From positions 1-63,552 of IMG/VR virus record IMGVR_UViG_3300050343_000084: a DNA stretch of 63,552 nucleotides. One strand, given 5' to 3'. The notes beneath the pieces were generated by a model. That model was given only the letters and a program-made list of their open reading frames with translations, was not told where the DNA came from and did no database searches. A program made the translations under genes and the position numbers. The stretch comes from a virus. Below are positions 5,121 to 36,627 of this stretch, one piece after another (the stretch's first letter is position 1; each line of letters begins with the position of its first letter).

Positions 5121-6533
5121 TTAGCTTGTCGCTTTCAACAATACGAAGTTGTTAGCAGCTTGAACACACAACGCTCTTTCAGATAAGAAGTGTACGTTCA
5201 TTTCGTCAGCGTCAGAAGTATAGTTACCTCCTACTGATCCAGTCACCCAAGACTTCATTCTACGGTCATCAGCTTCAGAAGCTCTGTAGCGGATGTGTAG
5301 GAATGGACGTGAGATGTTCTTTCCGAGTTGCTGATCGTAAACTGTAGAAGTACCAGCAGGAACTAGTACACCTTCAACATCTGCAACTAATCCACGAGTT
5401 GTAGAATCGTTTAGATATTTCCAGTCAGTTTTATAGAAATCGTAAGAACCTCTACGGAATCCTGAGAAACCTAGGTTAAGTGCCATATCTTCTGAATTGT
5501 CAAATACACCGTAAGATGTACCTCCAGCTCCATAAGAATTTTGAGCAGCCAACATATTGTCAATAGCTAGTGAAGTACCGCGATCTAAGAAAAGCATGTT
5601 TTCTTCGATTGATCCTTGCTTGTCTAGCTCAGCCAAAATAGTGTCAAAGTCAGCAAGACCTGCGCCTGCAGCAGCTCCGAAGTCAGCGTCAGTATAAACT
5701 AATCCTCTTTCTTCAAGAGCAGCAAATAGACCTTCAGATCCAGTTACGTTTGTACCACCGCCAAATCCAGCAGCAGCAGTAATATCACGTACATTACCTG
5801 CACCATCTGTTGATTTTTCTGCTTCAACCATAGCCATTTCAAGTTGATCTTCGAAACGGATACGAGCTTCGTGCTCAGACTTTAAGTACCAAAGGTAACC
5901 AGAAGTTCCAGCTTCAGTAGTTACTTCTACCCAACCAATTTGAGCAACATCAGAACCGTTTACATTATACTTGTCACGCAAGATAATTGGTTTGTTGTTG
6001 AAAGTTGTGAAAGAAGCATCAATTGAATTACCAGCTTTTTCAGTTCCTTTAGCGTACTCAGAACCGTAAACAAATACTTTTACGTCGCCTCCAGTGATAG
6101 TTAATCCTGATGCGTCGCCATAAGTATCTACAGTTACAGCCTGCCCCACTACGTCTTGTACATATGCTTTTTGCGTTGTAAAGCCTTTAGATACAACAAG
6201 TGTCATTCCTTTTCCGATCAAGTGACCTGCAGGGAATGTCAAAGTTGTAGCGTCTGCTACAGCAACATCATCATAAGCAATGTGTAAACGTCCTTGTTCT
6301 GACCAAGTAATTACGTCAGAAGCCATAGGCATTTCAGCGCCTACCATACGTAAAAATCCAGAAATAGTACGATTTCCATATCGCTCTACTTCTTTCTCAT
6401 ATACCTCAGGCAAAAATTGTTGCGTGAAGTCTAAGTCCGCGACAGAAAGGTAGTTGTCTCCAAACAATCCCTTAATAGGTCGTGGTGTTAAATGTGCGAG
6501 AGCTGTTGGGCTCCCAGTAAAAGATCCAGCCAT
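5121..6533 (-). CDS. Major capsid protein
   Basis: A 470-residue protein called as the major head protein from its place directly after the scaffold-like gene (22-base gap) and the portal, its length, and its composition: Gly/Ala/Thr-rich, with motifs such as PEVYEKEVERYGNRTISGFL near residue 43 and a repetitive Gly-rich middle. Codon choice looks stronger than in the neighbours, as expected for a very abundant protein. A hairpin at 5081-5105 follows it. I cannot assign the fold family from sequence alone; an HK97-type fold is expected for a tailed phage. Confidence 0.8.
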   Translation of the reverse strand: MAGSFTGSPTALAHLTPRPIKGLFGDNYLSVADLDFTQQFLPEVYEKEVERYGNRTISGFLRMVGAEMPMASDVITWSEQGRLHIAYDDVAVADATTLTFPAGHLIGKGMTLVVSKGFTTQKAYVQDVVGQAVTVDTYGDASGLTITGGDVKVFVYGSEYAKGTEKAGNSIDASFTTFNNKPIILRDKYNVNGSDVAQIGWVEVTTEAGTSGYLWYLKSEHEARIRFEDQLEMAMVEAEKSTDGAGNVRDITAAAGFGGGTNVTGSEGLFAALEERGLVYTDADFGAAAGAGLADFDTILAELDKQGSIEENMLFLDRGTSLAIDNMLAAQNSYGAGGTSYGVFDNSEDMALNLGFSGFRRGSYDFYKTDWKYLNDSTTRGLVADVEGVLVPAGTSTVYDQQLGKNISRPFLHIRYRASEADDRRMKSWVTGSVGGNYTSDADEMNVHFLSERALCVQAANNFVLLKATS

Positions 6534-17220: not shown

Positions 17221-17474
17221 TCTATAAGCACTATATCTGAAATTTTCAGCACATAATACAAATGATCGTTCCATTCTATTCCATGCCCAGCGTGTTTGTC
17301 ATATCTAACAAAATCACCGTCTTGCAGTATATCTATTTGATCACCTATACTTATTACTCTACCTTTAACGTAACGAACGTCTTTATTTTGTTTTTCAGTA
17401 AGCTCTAGCCCACCAACTTTTGTAGGCTCCTCTTTAATTTTATCTACAATTACAAAATGATTTATTGCTTTCAT
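17217..17474 (-). CDS. groES: GroES co-chaperonin
   Basis: An 85-residue single-domain GroES: an initial strand (INHFVIVDKIKEEPTKVGG), a mobile-loop-like segment (residues ~16-34; LELTEKQNKDVRY), the conserved KGRVISIGD turn, LQDGDFVRYDKHAGHGIEWN and a terminal strand YYVLKISDIVLIE. It overlaps the groEL stop by 4 bases, so the pair is translationally coupled. It forms the heptameric lid of the chaperonin cage. It is slightly shorter than the usual 95-97 residues. Confidence 0.82.
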   Translation of the reverse strand: MKAINHFVIVDKIKEEPTKVGGLELTEKQNKDVRYVKGRVISIGDQIDILQDGDFVRYDKHAGHGIEWNDHLYYVLKISDIVLIE

Positions 17475-19024
17475 GCTAATCGTTTATTACTGATTACACA
17501 ATCTGCAGATATAATAGTTGTAACAACACTTACCGCATTCTTTAAAGCTGTTTTGGTAACTAACACCGGATCTATAATGCCGGCTTTAACCATATTAACA
17601 TCTTTACCTGTTTTAACGTCTATACCTCTGTTTTTGATTTGAGGATAAACTACTTGCATATTAGCGTTTTCTAATATAGTCTCATATGGTGATCTTATTG
17701 CAGCAAGCAATATCTCCTCACCTTTATTTTTCGGCTTAATCAGTGTAGAAGCATTCAGCAAAGCTACACCTCCGCCTGGAACTATACCTTCTTTATAAGC
17801 GGCTTTTGTCGCATATATCGCATCTTCAATACGATCTTTCTTTTCTTTAAGCTCAACCTTAGAGTCAGCCCCGACATAAATTATACCGACTTGACCAGTT
17901 AGCATTGATAATCGTTGCTCTAATTTTTTCTTAAAGAACGGATTGGTTTCTTCAGCTATTTGCTTTTCAACATCCATTATTCGTAGAGCTACTTCTTCAT
18001 TTGCTTCAGCTACTTGCAGAACAGTGTTTTTATCGTCCGTAACAGCTTTAAAAGCTTTTCCTAATACATTAGGCTCTATGAAGTCTAAATCGTCTCCTAA
18101 CTCTTCGTTTATGATTTGAGCGCCAGTGAGTATTGCTAAGTCTTCAAGCGTTTGCTGCTTAGTTGGACCAAAGCCAGGTAAATCAACTATATTTACTTTT
18201 ATATTACCTTTTACTTTATTAGCTAATAATGTTTGATACGGCTGTTGATCCATATCCGCTACTATTAGCAGGCTCTTTTTATTTTTAATTACAAACTCTA
18301 ATACGTTTTGTATTCTTCTTATATTAGGTATCGGCGAAGATACTATAAGAACATATGGGTCTTCTAATGTAGCTGTACCTTTATTTTTATCCGTAGATAA
18401 ATGCGAGGATTTTAAACCGCTGTCAAATTGCACGCCGTCAACAAACTCAACATAAGTTTCGTTTGTATCAGACTCTTCCATTAGAACGACTCCATTTTTT
18501 CCAACTTTTTCATAAGCTTGTCCAATTTTATTTCCAAGCTCTGTGTCGTTGTTGCATGAAATACCAGCAACTTGGTTAAGCATTTCACCTTTAACTTCAG
18601 TACTGGCTTTGTCAAGATAAACCATAACTTTTTCAGCACCACTAATAATGCCGCTTTTAAGCTCTCTAACTTCTTCCTCATTTAAATGCTTGTTAACTGT
18701 TTTTAATAAAGAATGCGCAAGGACGGTTGATGTTGTTGTGCCGTCCCCGGCTTCTTTTACTGTATTGCTTGCCGCTTCCTTTATAAGTGTAGCGCCAATA
18801 TTCTCAACCGGATGTAATAAGACTACGCTTTCCGCAACGGTTACACCATCTTTTGTAATCACCGGTTTTCCAAGGGCGTCTTCATATATAACGCATTTTC
18901 CAGACGCACCTAATGTGCTCTTTACTGCGTTTGACAATTTTTCAACGCCTTGCATAATTTGTTGTTTGGCATCATTGCCAAATGTGAGAGTTTTAACTAT
19001 CTCACTAGGGTTATTAAATTCCAT
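17471..19024 (-). CDS. groEL: GroEL chaperonin
   Basis: A 517-residue group I chaperonin. ATP-binding residues are present: ITKDG (56-60), the GDGTTT signature (93-98) and RIEDA with Asp401 corresponding to the catalytic Asp398 of E. coli. The GIVPGGGVAL block is at 413-422. It lacks the C-terminal GGM-repeat tail of bacterial GroEL and ends in ISNKRLA, accounting for most of the ~30 residue shortfall. With groES directly downstream it should give a complete folding machine, probably for capsid or fibre proteins, which flank it in the late block. The start is preceded by an A/T-only stretch with no Shine-Dalgarno sequence. Confidence 0.93.
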   Translation of the reverse strand: MEFNNPSEIVKTLTFGNDAKQQIMQGVEKLSNAVKSTLGASGKCVIYEDALGKPVITKDGVTVAESVVLLHPVENIGATLIKEAASNTVKEAGDGTTTSTVLAHSLLKTVNKHLNEEEVRELKSGIISGAEKVMVYLDKASTEVKGEMLNQVAGISCNNDTELGNKIGQAYEKVGKNGVVLMEESDTNETYVEFVDGVQFDSGLKSSHLSTDKNKGTATLEDPYVLIVSSPIPNIRRIQNVLEFVIKNKKSLLIVADMDQQPYQTLLANKVKGNIKVNIVDLPGFGPTKQQTLEDLAILTGAQIINEELGDDLDFIEPNVLGKAFKAVTDDKNTVLQVAEANEEVALRIMDVEKQIAEETNPFFKKKLEQRLSMLTGQVGIIYVGADSKVELKEKKDRIEDAIYATKAAYKEGIVPGGGVALLNASTLIKPKNKGEEILLAAIRSPYETILENANMQVVYPQIKNRGIDVKTGKDVNMVKAGIIDPVLVTKTALKNAVSVVTTIISADCVISNKRLA

Positions 19025-27109: not shown

Positions 27110-27229
27110 ATGTCAAACTTTTCTTACACACTACTGAAAATAAGCTGGAGAGTATTCGATAAGCATTACACTCAGCTGACAGACGAACAGAAGTCTGAAG
27201 TCCTGGATATCTATTACGATTTCTACTAG
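27110..27229 (+). CDS. Small early protein, 39 residues
   Basis: MSNFSYTLLKISWRVFDKHY then QLTDEQKSEVLDIYYDFY. It is helical and acidic at the end. The TDEQ segment echoes the TDEQLLVVKQE of the first small gene, suggesting related helix-turn units. Unrecognised. Confidence 0.4.
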   Translation: MSNFSYTLLKISWRVFDKHYTQLTDEQKSEVLDIYYDFY

Positions 27230-30396: not shown

Positions 30397-30435
30397 TTAC
30401 AAACATAATACGAACCACTTACGATAATATATATG
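30396..30435 (+). promoter_or_regulatory. Early promoter motif 7
   Basis: ATTACAAACA at 30396, TACGAA at 30409, CGATAATATATATG at 30422. It reads into the zinc-ribbon gene at 30456 and then directly into the structured non-coding region. Confidence 0.72.
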
Positions 30436-30455
30436 TAACAACAAAAAACAAAATT

Positions 30456-30644
30456 ATGTATTGCAAATGCGGAGATAAAGTACACCCAGTACGACTAAAT
30501 TTAGGTTATAAAACATGTGTACCATGTTCAACTACCCAAACGTACAGCTATGTACCAATTATCGAACACAAAACAGGTAATACAATACAAATCGTCAGCC
30601 AAGAAGTTAGCGCTTCTGTACACAGAGCTTGGCGGCGTAAATAG
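30456..30644 (+). CDS. Small zinc-ribbon-like protein
   Basis: A 62-residue protein, MYCKCGDKVHPVRLNLGYKT followed by CVPCS, giving CxC and CxxC pairs ~18 residues apart, a compact zinc-ribbon pattern similar to DksA/TraR-type small proteins. The ATG after promoter motif 7 is chosen over a frame opening at 30372, which would start inside the promoter. It could modulate host RNA polymerase, but that is only a family analogy. Confidence 0.55.
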   Translation: MYCKCGDKVHPVRLNLGYKTCVPCSTTQTYSYVPIIEHKTGNTIQIVSQEVSASVHRAWRRK

Positions 30645-31023
30645 TGTGTTTCCCACTAAGACTCTGACGAAGGGTTGAAACTTGCTAATCGGCAAGCAGC
30701 AGAAAGGATGTTTGACACATTACAGAGAGGTTTAAGGTTGGAAGCCGTATCGAGTAGTAAAGCGAGTGAGAATGCAAGTACAGGCTTTGATGAGTCACAC
30801 GTACTAAAAACACTCAATAGTTATTACCCGGCAGAAAGACGGGATAAAACAGATAAAAGGATATAAGTCAGGGCATACTAGTAAATGACGTGCATTCCTA
30901 ACATTCCAGTCCCGTCCACCTCTCAAATATAACCGGCGCGCATACCGGTGTGCCGCCGTCCCTCGCGGGAAACATGTGCTACACAGCACCAAGCCTTTTA
31001 GGTTGAAAACAAGTGAGGGAATA
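30645..31023 (+). ncRNA. Structured non-coding RNA candidate
   Basis: About 380 bases without a credible gene in an otherwise gene-dense block, and visibly richer in G and C than its neighbours. Perfect or G-U-tolerant stems: CTTGC/GCAAG (30681-30696), GACGGGA (30838-30844) with TCCCGTC (30910-30916), an 8-bp CGGCGCGC/GTGTGCCG (30934-30955), TCCC/GGGA (30959-30970), GTGCT/AGCAC (30976-30989) and AGCCT/AGGTT (30992-31004). It is transcribed from promoter motif 7 and ends against a tRNA-like fold. I cannot match it to tmRNA, RNase P RNA or a group I intron. Large phage RNAs found beside tRNAs (GOLLD or ROOL type) are a possible comparison, unverified. Confidence 0.55.
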
Positions 31024-31024
31024 T

Positions 31025-31093
31025 GGGCGTGAAATGGATAGGGGTTCTGCTTTGTGCATTACCTAAACGCAGGTTCGATTCCTGCCACGTCCA
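31025..31093 (+). tRNA. tRNA-like element (degenerate or processed with the upstream RNA)
   Basis: A clear 7-bp acceptor stem (GGGCGTG 31025-31031 with CACGTCC 31086-31092, one G-U) and a perfect T-arm (GCAGG, loop TTCGATT, CCTGC; 31069-31085) with A93 as discriminator. The 37 bases between them are about 4 short for a normal cloverleaf. The best anticodon arm has loop CTTTGTG, which would put TTG (Gln) at the anticodon, but it has two mismatches, and no proper D-arm forms. No CCA is encoded. The next gene starts 3 bases later. It may be the 3' domain of the structured RNA rather than a functional tRNA. Confidence 0.5.
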
Positions 31094-31095
31094 CT

Positions 31096-31302
31096 ATGGA
31101 AATAAATAAATATATAAAAACAGAGATGGCGAAGCTCGATCGAGGTATCGTAGCAACGCCTGAAGACAGAGAACAACTAGAGAACTTTGCCGGTGGATGC
31201 GGTCAAGGCTCTTTAATACTAATGCAAATGGCAATTAACTTCGGTTATAAAATAGCGTTAGAAAATTTACAAATTGAATACGAACAAGAATCGATAATAT
31301 AA
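31096..31302 (+). CDS. Early hypothetical protein, 68 residues
   Basis: The ATG at 31096, right after the tRNA-like fold, is preferred; a longer frame from 31054 would be translated from the T-arm. Starts MEINKYIKTEMAKLDRGIVA, then a helix with CGQGSLILMQMAINFGYKIA. Function unknown. Confidence 0.5.
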   Translation: MEINKYIKTEMAKLDRGIVATPEDREQLENFAGGCGQGSLILMQMAINFGYKIALENLQIEYEQESII

Positions 31303-34456: not shown

Positions 34457-34556
34457 ACTAATATGGCAACTATACAACGAAAATATGATAAGCGAAGAAG
34501 TCGCTCACCTATTATTAGACAAACATTATAATAGAGTTAACAACAAAAGGTTTTAA
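34449..34556 (+). CDS. Small protein, 35 residues
   Basis: MSKLIWQLYNENMISEEVAH with a basic end. It sits between ligase and glycosylase and overlaps both (8 bases and 1 base), the pattern of coupled genes here. Unrecognised. Confidence 0.4.
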   Translation: MSKLIWQLYNENMISEEVAHLLLDKHYNRVNNKRF

Positions 34557-35059
34557 TGAATATATTTTATTTACACCCAGACCCAGCTAAAGCGGCTAGT
34601 TTCTTTTACGACAAGCATAAGGTTAAAATGATTCTGGAGTCGGCGCAAATGTTATGTACTGCACATCATGTATATAACAACGGTGACAATGTGCCATACA
34701 AAAAAGCACACCTTAATCATCCAAGTACTATATGGGTACGTGATAGTATACACCACTACAATTGGTTGTACGATCACATGCTTGCATTAGGTAAAGAGTA
34801 TACAGCTAGATACAATAAGCATCACCTTAGTATTGCTAAGTGTCGTGAAGCTTTAATGTACCCGCCTTCAGGTATGCCCGATAATGGATTTATCCAACCG
34901 CCTCAATGTATGCCTGACGAATACAAAGAGCTTAGTAGCTTAGCTGCGTATTGGAATTATTATGAACAAGAAAAACACACAGTAAAAAATAAAAATGAGC
35001 AAAAAATTATACGACCACATTATATCAACGAATTATGCGAACATTACGAAGAAAGTTAA
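34556..35059 (+). CDS. Pyrimidine-dimer DNA glycosylase-like protein
   Basis: A 167-residue protein beginning MNIFYLHPDPAKAASFFYDK with HKVKMILESAQMLCTAHHVY, the signature of the phage pyrimidine-dimer glycosylase / endonuclease V-like family (a conserved D-x-x-K-x-A start and K-M-x-L-E helix), followed by HPSTIWVRDSIHHYNWLYDH. It probably excises UV photoproducts or acts as a related base-excision enzyme. It groups with ligase, consistent with repair. Confidence 0.7.
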   Translation: MNIFYLHPDPAKAASFFYDKHKVKMILESAQMLCTAHHVYNNGDNVPYKKAHLNHPSTIWVRDSIHHYNWLYDHMLALGKEYTARYNKHHLSIAKCREALMYPPSGMPDNGFIQPPQCMPDEYKELSSLAAYWNYYEQEKHTVKNKNEQKIIRPHYINELCEHYEES

Positions 35060-35257: not shown

Positions 35258-35878
35258 ATGTCATACTACGACCGAAATACCAAATATCTAGAGCAGCATC
35301 GTATTATATACCGGCAAAATCCAACAACAGACGAACCAACGGAATCGTTTGACTGGGGCTGGTATTACGAGAGTGGCACACATCAATGCTATACACTCTT
35401 TAATTCGCGGGCTAAAATAAACACATATAAGAGCCTTAAATGGCATCTGTATGTATTATGGTATCTTAATCCTCAAATGGATCAAGAAGCATTCGCGGGG
35501 CTTGTTAAATACGTTTGTAATAAGCGCACAGGGTTTATAACATTCAATGTTTCGGATCAACTCAGGGAAAGCATGATATATGATGTTTCGTTAATGGAAT
35601 TAGATACACCGCCACCTAATAAATTACGTAAAGTTATATTCAAAGACTTCACGGGTTTAGACATGCGACAAAAGCTATCTATAGTAGGTAAGCTAGTCGG
35701 TAGATCTAAAATATCTGAAAGCGAAATATACGATGCGATGTTACTTATAAATGATAGTCAAATTAAAATAACGGTTGCAAGGCTTGCTGATGCACTTAAA
35801 TGTTCAACAAGAACTATATATCGCAATATGAGTAACGAACTTAAAAAAGAAAAAGAATTACTTAATCAACAACTATGA
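35258..35878 (+). CDS. Helix-turn-helix DNA-binding protein
   Basis: A 206-residue protein whose C-terminus holds a helix-turn-helix: ITVARLADALKCSTRTIYRN, with the typical spacing A-x-x-L-x-x-S-x-x-T. The N-terminal ~110 residues are Tyr/Trp-rich (SFDWGWYYESGTHQCYTLFN) without a recognised domain. It overlaps the sigma gene by 4 bases, so the two are coupled. It is likely a regulator or sigma/anti-sigma-type partner of phage transcription. Confidence 0.65.
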   Translation: MSYYDRNTKYLEQHRIIYRQNPTTDEPTESFDWGWYYESGTHQCYTLFNSRAKINTYKSLKWHLYVLWYLNPQMDQEAFAGLVKYVCNKRTGFITFNVSDQLRESMIYDVSLMELDTPPPNKLRKVIFKDFTGLDMRQKLSIVGKLVGRSKISESEIYDAMLLINDSQIKITVARLADALKCSTRTIYRNMSNELKKEKELLNQQL

Positions 35879-36627
35879 AAAAGTACAATGTACAAAACTA
35901 TATAAGGTATAAGGAAGATCTTAAACGTTCTATGCCCGAAGATAAGTTTTATGATTACTACACAAGAGATGAGTTAATTGTAAAATTTTTACCGCTTGTT
36001 GAGAATTTAGCGCGCAAGTTCGCTACATCAGAACAAGCATCCGGAGTACTAAGTATTAACGATTTAATACAAGAAGGTAGCAAAGGTTTAACTCTTGCGG
36101 TAGATAAGTTAGAATGGGATAAGCTTATTGACTCTGAAGATATTGAAAAAACTTTAAAAAGTTTCTTTAGTAAAAGAATTAAAGGAGCTATAAGACGTGC
36201 AATTGATATTAACCGCGGCGACATACGTATACCAGAACATAAGCTAACTGAAATACGTAAGAATCCTAAAGATGAAAAAATTGTTACAATGTTTTTTAAT
36301 TCTATATTTTCCAGTATAGACGCTAATTATAATACAGATGAAGAAAATCCATTGTTTCAAATACCAGATGAATCTGAACCATATAATATTAATTTACTTA
36401 ATGCTTATTTGTTAAGTTTAATGAAACAACACTTAACAGGTATTGAATATGAAGTATTGAGATTATCATATGGTTTGGATTGCGATAAGCACTCTGCTAA
36501 TTATATAGCGGGTAAATTAAACATAAATGTAAACACTGCAAACGTACGTGTTTCACAGATAAAAAGAGAAGCTATAAATAAACTTATCGCTAACACTGAC
36601 GCAAACCAAGTGATTGATTATCTGTAA
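35875..36627 (+). CDS. Phage RNA polymerase sigma factor
   Basis: A 250-residue sigma70-family protein. Region 2 spans about 31-112, including LVENLARKFA and the core-binding INDLIQEGSKGLTLAVDKLE; region 2.4/3.0 has KGAIRRAIDINRGDIRIPEH, close to primary-sigma IRIP-H; region 4 is at about 195-245 with TGIEYEVLRLSYGLDC and the HTH SANYIAGKLNINVNTANVRV. Region 1 is missing. It should redirect host RNA polymerase to phage promoters; the ten-copy tripartite motif is the natural target. Translated with the HTH gene upstream. Confidence 0.82.
   Translation: MKKYNVQNYIRYKEDLKRSMPEDKFYDYYTRDELIVKFLPLVENLARKFATSEQASGVLSINDLIQEGSKGLTLAVDKLEWDKLIDSEDIEKTLKSFFSKRIKGAIRRAIDINRGDIRIPEHKLTEIRKNPKDEKIVTMFFNSIFSSIDANYNTDEENPLFQIPDESEPYNINLLNAYLLSLMKQHLTGIEYEVLRLSYGLDCDKHSANYIAGKLNINVNTANVRVSQIKREAINKLIANTDANQVIDYL

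What the first reader, a model, noticed from the sequence alone, without database searches (positions are those of the whole stretch)
30645..31095. Long structured non-coding RNA ending in a tRNA-like fold
450 bases with no credible gene, raised GC, at least six helices including a long-range 7-bp pairing (30838/30910), transcribed from a phage promoter, and closed by a perfect acceptor stem plus T-arm but no proper D-arm. It matches no standard RNA I recognise. Large phage RNAs near tRNAs (GOLLD, ROOL) are the nearest idea, but this may be a new class. Such an RNA could form oligomers, be packaged, or mimic a tRNA to hijack host processing.
Basis: partly seen in the sequence, partly recalled or inferred. 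Interest (0 to 1): 0.8.

Follow-up and report, generated by a model that had tools for sequence, protein, structure and literature searches.

The report
Phage mini-tmRNA with swappable RNA modules
A group of uncultured marine phages carries a string of structured RNA pieces that plug into one another like nested building blocks and ends in a cut-down copy of the bacterial ribosome-rescue RNA (tmRNA) without its message part, an arrangement for which I found no described parallel.

Summary
Window 30642-31096 is a non-coding, GC-raised, structured stretch between two small genes. It is an array of separate RNA modules, J[S] - K[L] - hairpin - Q - tRNA-like structure (TLS), rather than one monolithic RNA. 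The TLS has a G3.U70 acceptor stem, discriminator A, a stemless D-loop with GG, a P2 helix and a T-arm: the tRNA-like domain of tmRNA with tag and pseudoknots missing. Rfam tmRNA scores it 36.4 bits, below the cut-off of 47; sister TLSs in five of 16 related phage contigs score 61-65; ordinary tRNAs score at most 27 in the controls. I found 119 distinct TLSs (92 distinct inserts by a stricter pattern), covarying at P2. Inserts are themselves modules that recur in other scaffolds, sometimes nested two or three deep; the window's J and L occur inside the TLS of relatives. Function is not shown. My best guess: a tag-less mini-tmRNA that engages AlaRS/EF-Tu/SmpB as a decoy or scaffold and displays interchangeable RNA modules. 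GOLLD, ROOL and ordinary tRNA are not supported. No transcript data were available, and no cultured phage examined carries it.

The parts
30399..30432 (+). repeated promoter-like motif upstream of the 62-aa gene and the RNA array
   Evidence: same motif at 27229 and 27882, partial copies at about 28399, 29207, 31267, 33060
30457..30644 (+). conserved 62-aa Cys-rich protein gene (MYCKCGD...WRRK) that precedes the array in most relatives
   Evidence: tblastn hits in most relatives; no Pfam family
30642..30722 (+). RNA module J carrying insert S; its outer helix begins in the stop codon of the 62-aa gene
   Evidence: empty form in L005 (two copies, one inside a TLS); filled form inside the TLS P2 of L198; covarying outer helix
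30725..30924 (+). RNA module K (closing helix GAGAGG/CCTCTC) with module L inserted
   Evidence: homologues in L002-L007, L182, L213 with different inserts
30744..30832 (+). RNA module L, nested in K here, nested in TLS P2 in L142/L169/L207
30838..30916 (+). K core: 7-bp helix 30838-30844/30910-30916, inner helices, possible pseudoknot
   Evidence: 7 pairs with changes on both sides, 0 of 500 shuffles as high
30934..30958 (+). GC-rich hairpin
   Evidence: fold
30960..31019 (+). RNA module Q (CCCTC...GAGGG)
   Evidence: also in L009 and L179
31025..31096 (+). tRNA-like structure: tmRNA-type tRNA-like domain without tag ORF or pseudoknots; G3.U70, A73, GG D-loop, P2 31042-31045/31061-31064, T-arm 31069-31085
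   Evidence: Rfam tmRNA 36.4 bits; 119 distinct relatives; covariation
31096..31302 (+). next gene (68 aa, MEINKYIK...), start codon overlaps TLS 3' end
   Evidence: ORF list, homologue MDIKNFIK... in L012

Best explanation
Shown by sequence: the locus encodes an array of autonomous structured RNA modules ending in a tag-less, tmRNA-derived tRNA-like domain (TLD). In this phage group the tag and pseudoknots of tmRNA have been lost and the tip of P2 has become an insertion site where different structured modules are swapped in, nested inside each other. Inferred: the transcript is cut by RNase P at 31025 and matured at A31093, CCA is added, the TLD is charged with alanine through G3.U70, and EF-Tu and probably SmpB bind it. 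Having no resume codon and no tag it cannot complete trans-translation, so it acts as a decoy for the host's rescue machinery and as a stable scaffold that displays swappable RNA modules. The modules turn over by recombination and insertion, plausibly in an arms race with hosts. The identity part I hold at about 0.9; the confidence given is for identity plus the decoy/scaffold function.
For: tmRNA model hit 36.4 bits in the window; 61-65 bits, above the cut-off of 47, in five relatives; ordinary tRNAs 13.9-27.4 bits, including a tRNA-Ala at 27.2. Shared D-loop GGTTTTGAC between the sister TLS type and a real Bacteroidota tmRNA. G3.U70 in 81 of 81, and P2 pairing 0.69 against 0.40 shuffled, maximum 0.476 in 2000. 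119 distinct TLSs; 92 TLS inserts and 35 inserts in a second scaffold, sharing stretches up to 54 nt. Nesting table. Compensatory changes in K. Literature: SmpB binds the TLD and crystallises with a TLD fragment (PMC3022190).
Against: No transcript, charging or binding data. The window TLS is below the Rfam cut-off. Decoy function does not by itself explain the conserved inserts or the modules outside the TLS. The encoded 3' end is ACTA rather than ACCA (harmless if CCA is added). Other TLSs in the same phages (CTAGTT type) lack G3.U70.
Confidence: 0.4

Rival explanations
1. Processing punctuation: the TLS only recruits RNase P and RNase Z to cut the upstream RNA array from the downstream mRNA and to stabilise ends; inserts are tolerated because they sit at a helix tip.
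For: The TLS sits directly before a start codon in the window; what is constant is acceptor plus T-arm, the minimal RNase P/Z substrate; real tRNAs lie at the same place in relatives.
Against: Does not explain strict G3.U70 (81/81) or the retained tmRNA D-loop; the spacing to the next gene varies.
Confidence: 0.25
2. Selfish RNA or DNA hairpin elements: the modules are mobile sequences that insert into loops of stable RNAs, neutral at RNA level, with the TLS as a safe site.
For: Nested insertions, empty and filled sites (J in L005 against L002), two J copies in one phage, K core nested in K core in L182, same insert in several scaffolds.
Against: Internal loops of modules are conserved and helices covary; no transposase or homing enzyme was identified, though only ten genes near the locus were scanned.
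Confidence: 0.2
3. RNA architecture of the GOLLD/ROOL kind: the array forms a large RNA-only assembly, the TLS being its 3' domain.
For: Large structured phage RNA near tRNAs, as for GOLLD and ROOL (PMC12286853).
Against: No Rfam match; the architecture differs between close relatives, which a fixed assembly would not allow.
Confidence: 0.1
4. Decaying tmRNA or tRNA pseudogene.
For: Tag and pseudoknots are missing; ARAGORN rejects it.
Against: Acceptor, T-arm and P2 are maintained, P2 with compensatory changes, across over 100 phage contigs.
Confidence: 0.05

Closest known systems
tmRNA (SsrA), Rfam RF00023, tRNA-like domain
   Same: acceptor stem with G3.U70, discriminator A, stemless D-loop with GG, P2 helix, T-arm; D-type relatives exceed the Rfam cut-off
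   Different: no tag ORF, no resume codon, no pseudoknot ring; length mostly 70-190 nt instead of about 350-400; P2 tip carries unrelated, swappable modules
Phage-encoded complete tmRNAs (for example the two-piece tmRNA of methylophage Melnitz, PMC9004378)
   Same: tmRNA sequence in a marine phage genome
   Different: those keep the mRNA-like part; these do not and are not permuted
GOLLD and ROOL RNAs (PMC12286853)
   Same: large structured phage RNAs near tRNA genes, function unknown
   Different: no Rfam match; here the architecture changes from phage to phage
tRNA-Ala
   Same: G3.U70 and A73 identity elements, T-arm
   Different: no D-arm stem, no anticodon arm; not recognised by ARAGORN

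Membership tests
tmRNA (RF00023) | Rfam gathering score 47 bits | tested here: not met
   window 36.4 bits; met in five of 16 relatives tested at 61-65 bits
tmRNA (RF00023) | alanine-type acceptor (G3.U70, A73) and T-arm | tested here: met
   window sequence; 81 of 81 non-D-type trimmed sequences have G3.U70
tmRNA (RF00023) | stemless D-loop and P2 helix | tested here: met
tmRNA (RF00023) | tag reading frame with resume codon | tested here: not met
   25-nt interior in the window; ARAGORN finds no tmRNA in 208 loci except one doubtful call
tmRNA (RF00023) | pseudoknot ring PK1-PK4 | tested here: not met
   interior too short in the window; in relatives replaced by inserts of unrelated sequence
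tmRNA (RF00023) | alanylation, SmpB and ribosome binding | not testable with these tools
   needs biochemistry
GOLLD / ROOL | match to the Rfam covariance models | tested here: not met
   no hit at gathering score over the window, nor at E up to 10 over 30400-31250
GOLLD / ROOL | homo-oligomeric cage | not testable with these tools
   needs cryo-EM
canonical tRNA | cloverleaf with D-arm and anticodon arm | tested here: not met
   ARAGORN none; 37 nt between acceptor and T-arm with no D-stem
protein-coding gene | conserved reading frame in relatives | tested here: not met
   region length varies in all three residues mod 3, sequence turnover is modular

The most novel reading that the evidence does not exclude
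A new kind of RNA genetic system: phages that evolve non-coding RNAs combinatorially, swapping and nesting structured modules into a tmRNA-derived, aminoacylatable scaffold, as an RNA-level arms-race or decoy system.
Probability: 0.4. Interest if true: 0.93.

Novelty: categorically new. Interest (0 to 1): 0.82.

Why it matters
Modular shuffling is commonplace for phage proteins; here structured non-coding RNA does it, fast enough that close relatives share scaffolds but not inserts. The anchor is a tmRNA tRNA-like domain stripped of its message, which suggests that phages target or exploit ribosome rescue. It makes testable whether a tRNA-like domain alone can act on trans-translation, and supplies a natural catalogue of over 20 plug-in RNA modules and their attachment points. 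On its own the TLS would be a new variant of a known kind (tmRNA); the nested array as a whole fits no family I could test.

Tried and rejected
Ordinary tRNA or tmRNA gene (ARAGORN: none in the window; one doubtful tmRNA in 208 loci). Rfam families other than tmRNA: RAGATH-28, Plastid-ycf2 and tmRNA_permuted matches are weak (E 0.39-2.5) and rest mainly on the T-arm. Cultured phages: no match to the region, to the 62-aa protein or to two TLS queries beyond short T-arm matches; the tmRNA model is silent in two named phage records related by terminase. Bacterial genomes: only four pattern hits, all on contigs with genes of this phage group binned into MAGs. A hidden tag reading frame in the inserts: inserts are mostly unrelated to each other and none looked like a tag (by eye). 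Sigma-70 promoter scan: nothing above chance. Papers: no description of tag-less mini-tmRNAs or nested RNA modules in phages was found; the library is open-access only.

Full report
What is there. The window is a 63.5-kb virus record. Its terminase has its best match in an uncultured spring podovirus (63%) and then in Flavobacterium and Cellulophaga phages (about 45%). The flagged region lies between a conserved 62-aa Cys-rich gene (30457-30644) and a 68-aa gene whose ATG (31096) overlaps the end of the tRNA-like structure. GC is 46.6% against 37% around it. A promoter-like motif repeated in the early region lies upstream of the 62-aa gene, so the array is probably co-transcribed with that gene; this is inference.

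The tRNA-like structure. At 31025-31096 a perfect 7-bp acceptor stem (GGGCGTG/CACGTCC) and T-arm enclose 37 nt without a D-arm. The Rfam tmRNA model aligns end to end to it, skipping the mRNA-like part (36.4 bits, E 7e-13, cut-off 47). Controls: in 16 related phage contigs the same model gives 33-45 bits for TLSs of this type, 61-65 bits for a sister type in five contigs, and 13.9 bits at the position of an ordinary tRNA-Met (position). In a Bacteroidota MAG the real tmRNA gives 142 bits, the strongest ordinary tRNAs, including a tRNA-Ala, at most 27.4. The sister type (for example L036, GGGGGTGATATGGTTTTGACGTAG...CTACGGAAGACAGTTCGATTCTGTCCACCTCC) shares the D-loop string GGTTTTGAC with that Bacteroidota tmRNA. 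I conclude that the TLS descends from a tmRNA tRNA-like domain; this step is well supported, about 0.9.

A family with a variable arm. Eighty related contigs were recruited by the DNA ligase; pattern searches for the T-arm and acceptor gave 37 and 79 stretches in viral contigs. Together they give 119 distinct TLSs with an intact 7-bp acceptor; one listed row spans two tandem TLSs and a few short rows may use a chance 5' partner. G3.U70 is present in 81 of 81 non-D-type trimmed sequences, and A73 in 118 of 119. After the conserved AWAWGGTWAG comes P2, whose sequence differs in almost every phage yet pairs: 0.69 of cells at a fixed register against 0.40 in shuffles (maximum 0.476 of 2000), and 54 of 58 distinct 5' arms form at least 4 bp within two nucleotides of register. 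The search patterns fixed the acceptor and T-arm letters, so their uniformity is partly by selection; P2 was not in the patterns. G3.U70 and A73 are the classical alanine identity elements (established knowledge).

Nested modules. The tip of P2 holds inserts of about 10-150 nt, 92 distinct by the stricter pattern. They recur elsewhere: 35 distinct inserts of a second scaffold (A, GAGTAGCTTAATTAG..CATAAGTGAATTGC) share stretches up to 54 nt with TLS inserts; others are shared with scaffolds I, L, T and K (some I and T sharing is the same nested place counted twice). A table of about 25 bipartite modules shows the same module in different parents: M in TLS, A, F and T; P in TLS and L; R in I, Y and A; L in TLS and K. 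Empty and filled forms exist (J in L005 against L002). L005 carries J twice, once alone and once inside its TLS, with different but paired outer helices. L182 has a K core within a K core. The module definitions are mine, read from the sequences, and not exhaustive.

The window's own parse. J with insert S (30642-30722), K (30725-30924) with L inside (30744-30832), a GC-rich hairpin (30934-30958), Q (30960-31019), TLS (31025-31096). J occurs inside the TLS of L198, L inside the TLS of L142, L169 and L207. Single-sequence folding is only modestly better than shuffles (z -0.9 to -2.8), so the case rests on covariation and recurrence.

Distribution. By pattern, 52 of 80 ligase-recruited loci carry a G3.U70-type TLS and 61 carry some TLS. 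The terminases of carriers are 65-86% identical to the window's, so this is one phage group. No cultured phage matched. Four bacterial-genome hits are on contigs with this group's genes.

Mechanism. Shown: tmRNA-derived TLD, loss of tag and pseudoknots, conserved alanine identity, covarying P2, combinatorial inserts. Inferred: RNase P/Z processing, alanylation, EF-Tu and SmpB binding (SmpB binds the TLD and was crystallised with a TLD fragment, PMC3022190), and hence a decoy for ribosome rescue and a scaffold for the modules. The rivals are processing punctuation, selfish hairpin elements, a GOLLD/ROOL-like assembly, and decay; reasons are given in the fields above.

Membership. It is not filed as tmRNA because the tag frame and pseudoknots were tested and not met, nor as GOLLD, ROOL or tRNA. 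It may still work like the tRNA-like half of tmRNA.

Noticed in passing
27229, 27882, 30388 and partial copies at about 28399, 29207, 31267, 33060: Repeated promoter-like motif TACAAA..AATACGA..TCGATAATATA upstream of small early genes; the phage also encodes a weakly sigma-70-like protein at 35875-36627.
   Followed up: partly
L010, L011, L012, L018, L026, L034 and others, after the 62-aa gene: A second tRNA-like structure type with an AACTAG/CTAGTT acceptor and 3' ACAA, also with a variable insert; its acceptor is not of the alanine type.
   Followed up: partly
many relatives, mostly within about 2 kb downstream of the array: Real tRNA genes (Met CAT, Gln TTG, Arg TCT, Thr TGT, Gly TCC) lie near the array in relatives but not in the window.
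   Followed up: partly
L213, about 5390-5480: A further TLS whose encoded 3' end is CCA, directly upstream of a normal ACTA-ended TLS.
   Followed up: no
window 17471-19024, minus strand: The phage appears to encode its own GroEL-like chaperonin (read from the translation, not tested).
   Followed up: no
window 34556-35059: Pyrimidine-dimer glycosylase domain protein (Pfam PF03013).
   Followed up: no
L210, L211, L212, L213: MAGs labelled Ilumatobacteraceae, Aliivibrio and Bacteroidetes contain contigs with genes of this phage group; probably binned phage contigs.
   Followed up: partly
window 30642-30644 and 31096-31098: The RNA array abuts both neighbouring genes exactly: the first helix includes the upstream stop codon, and the TLS end overlaps the downstream start codon.
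   Followed up: no
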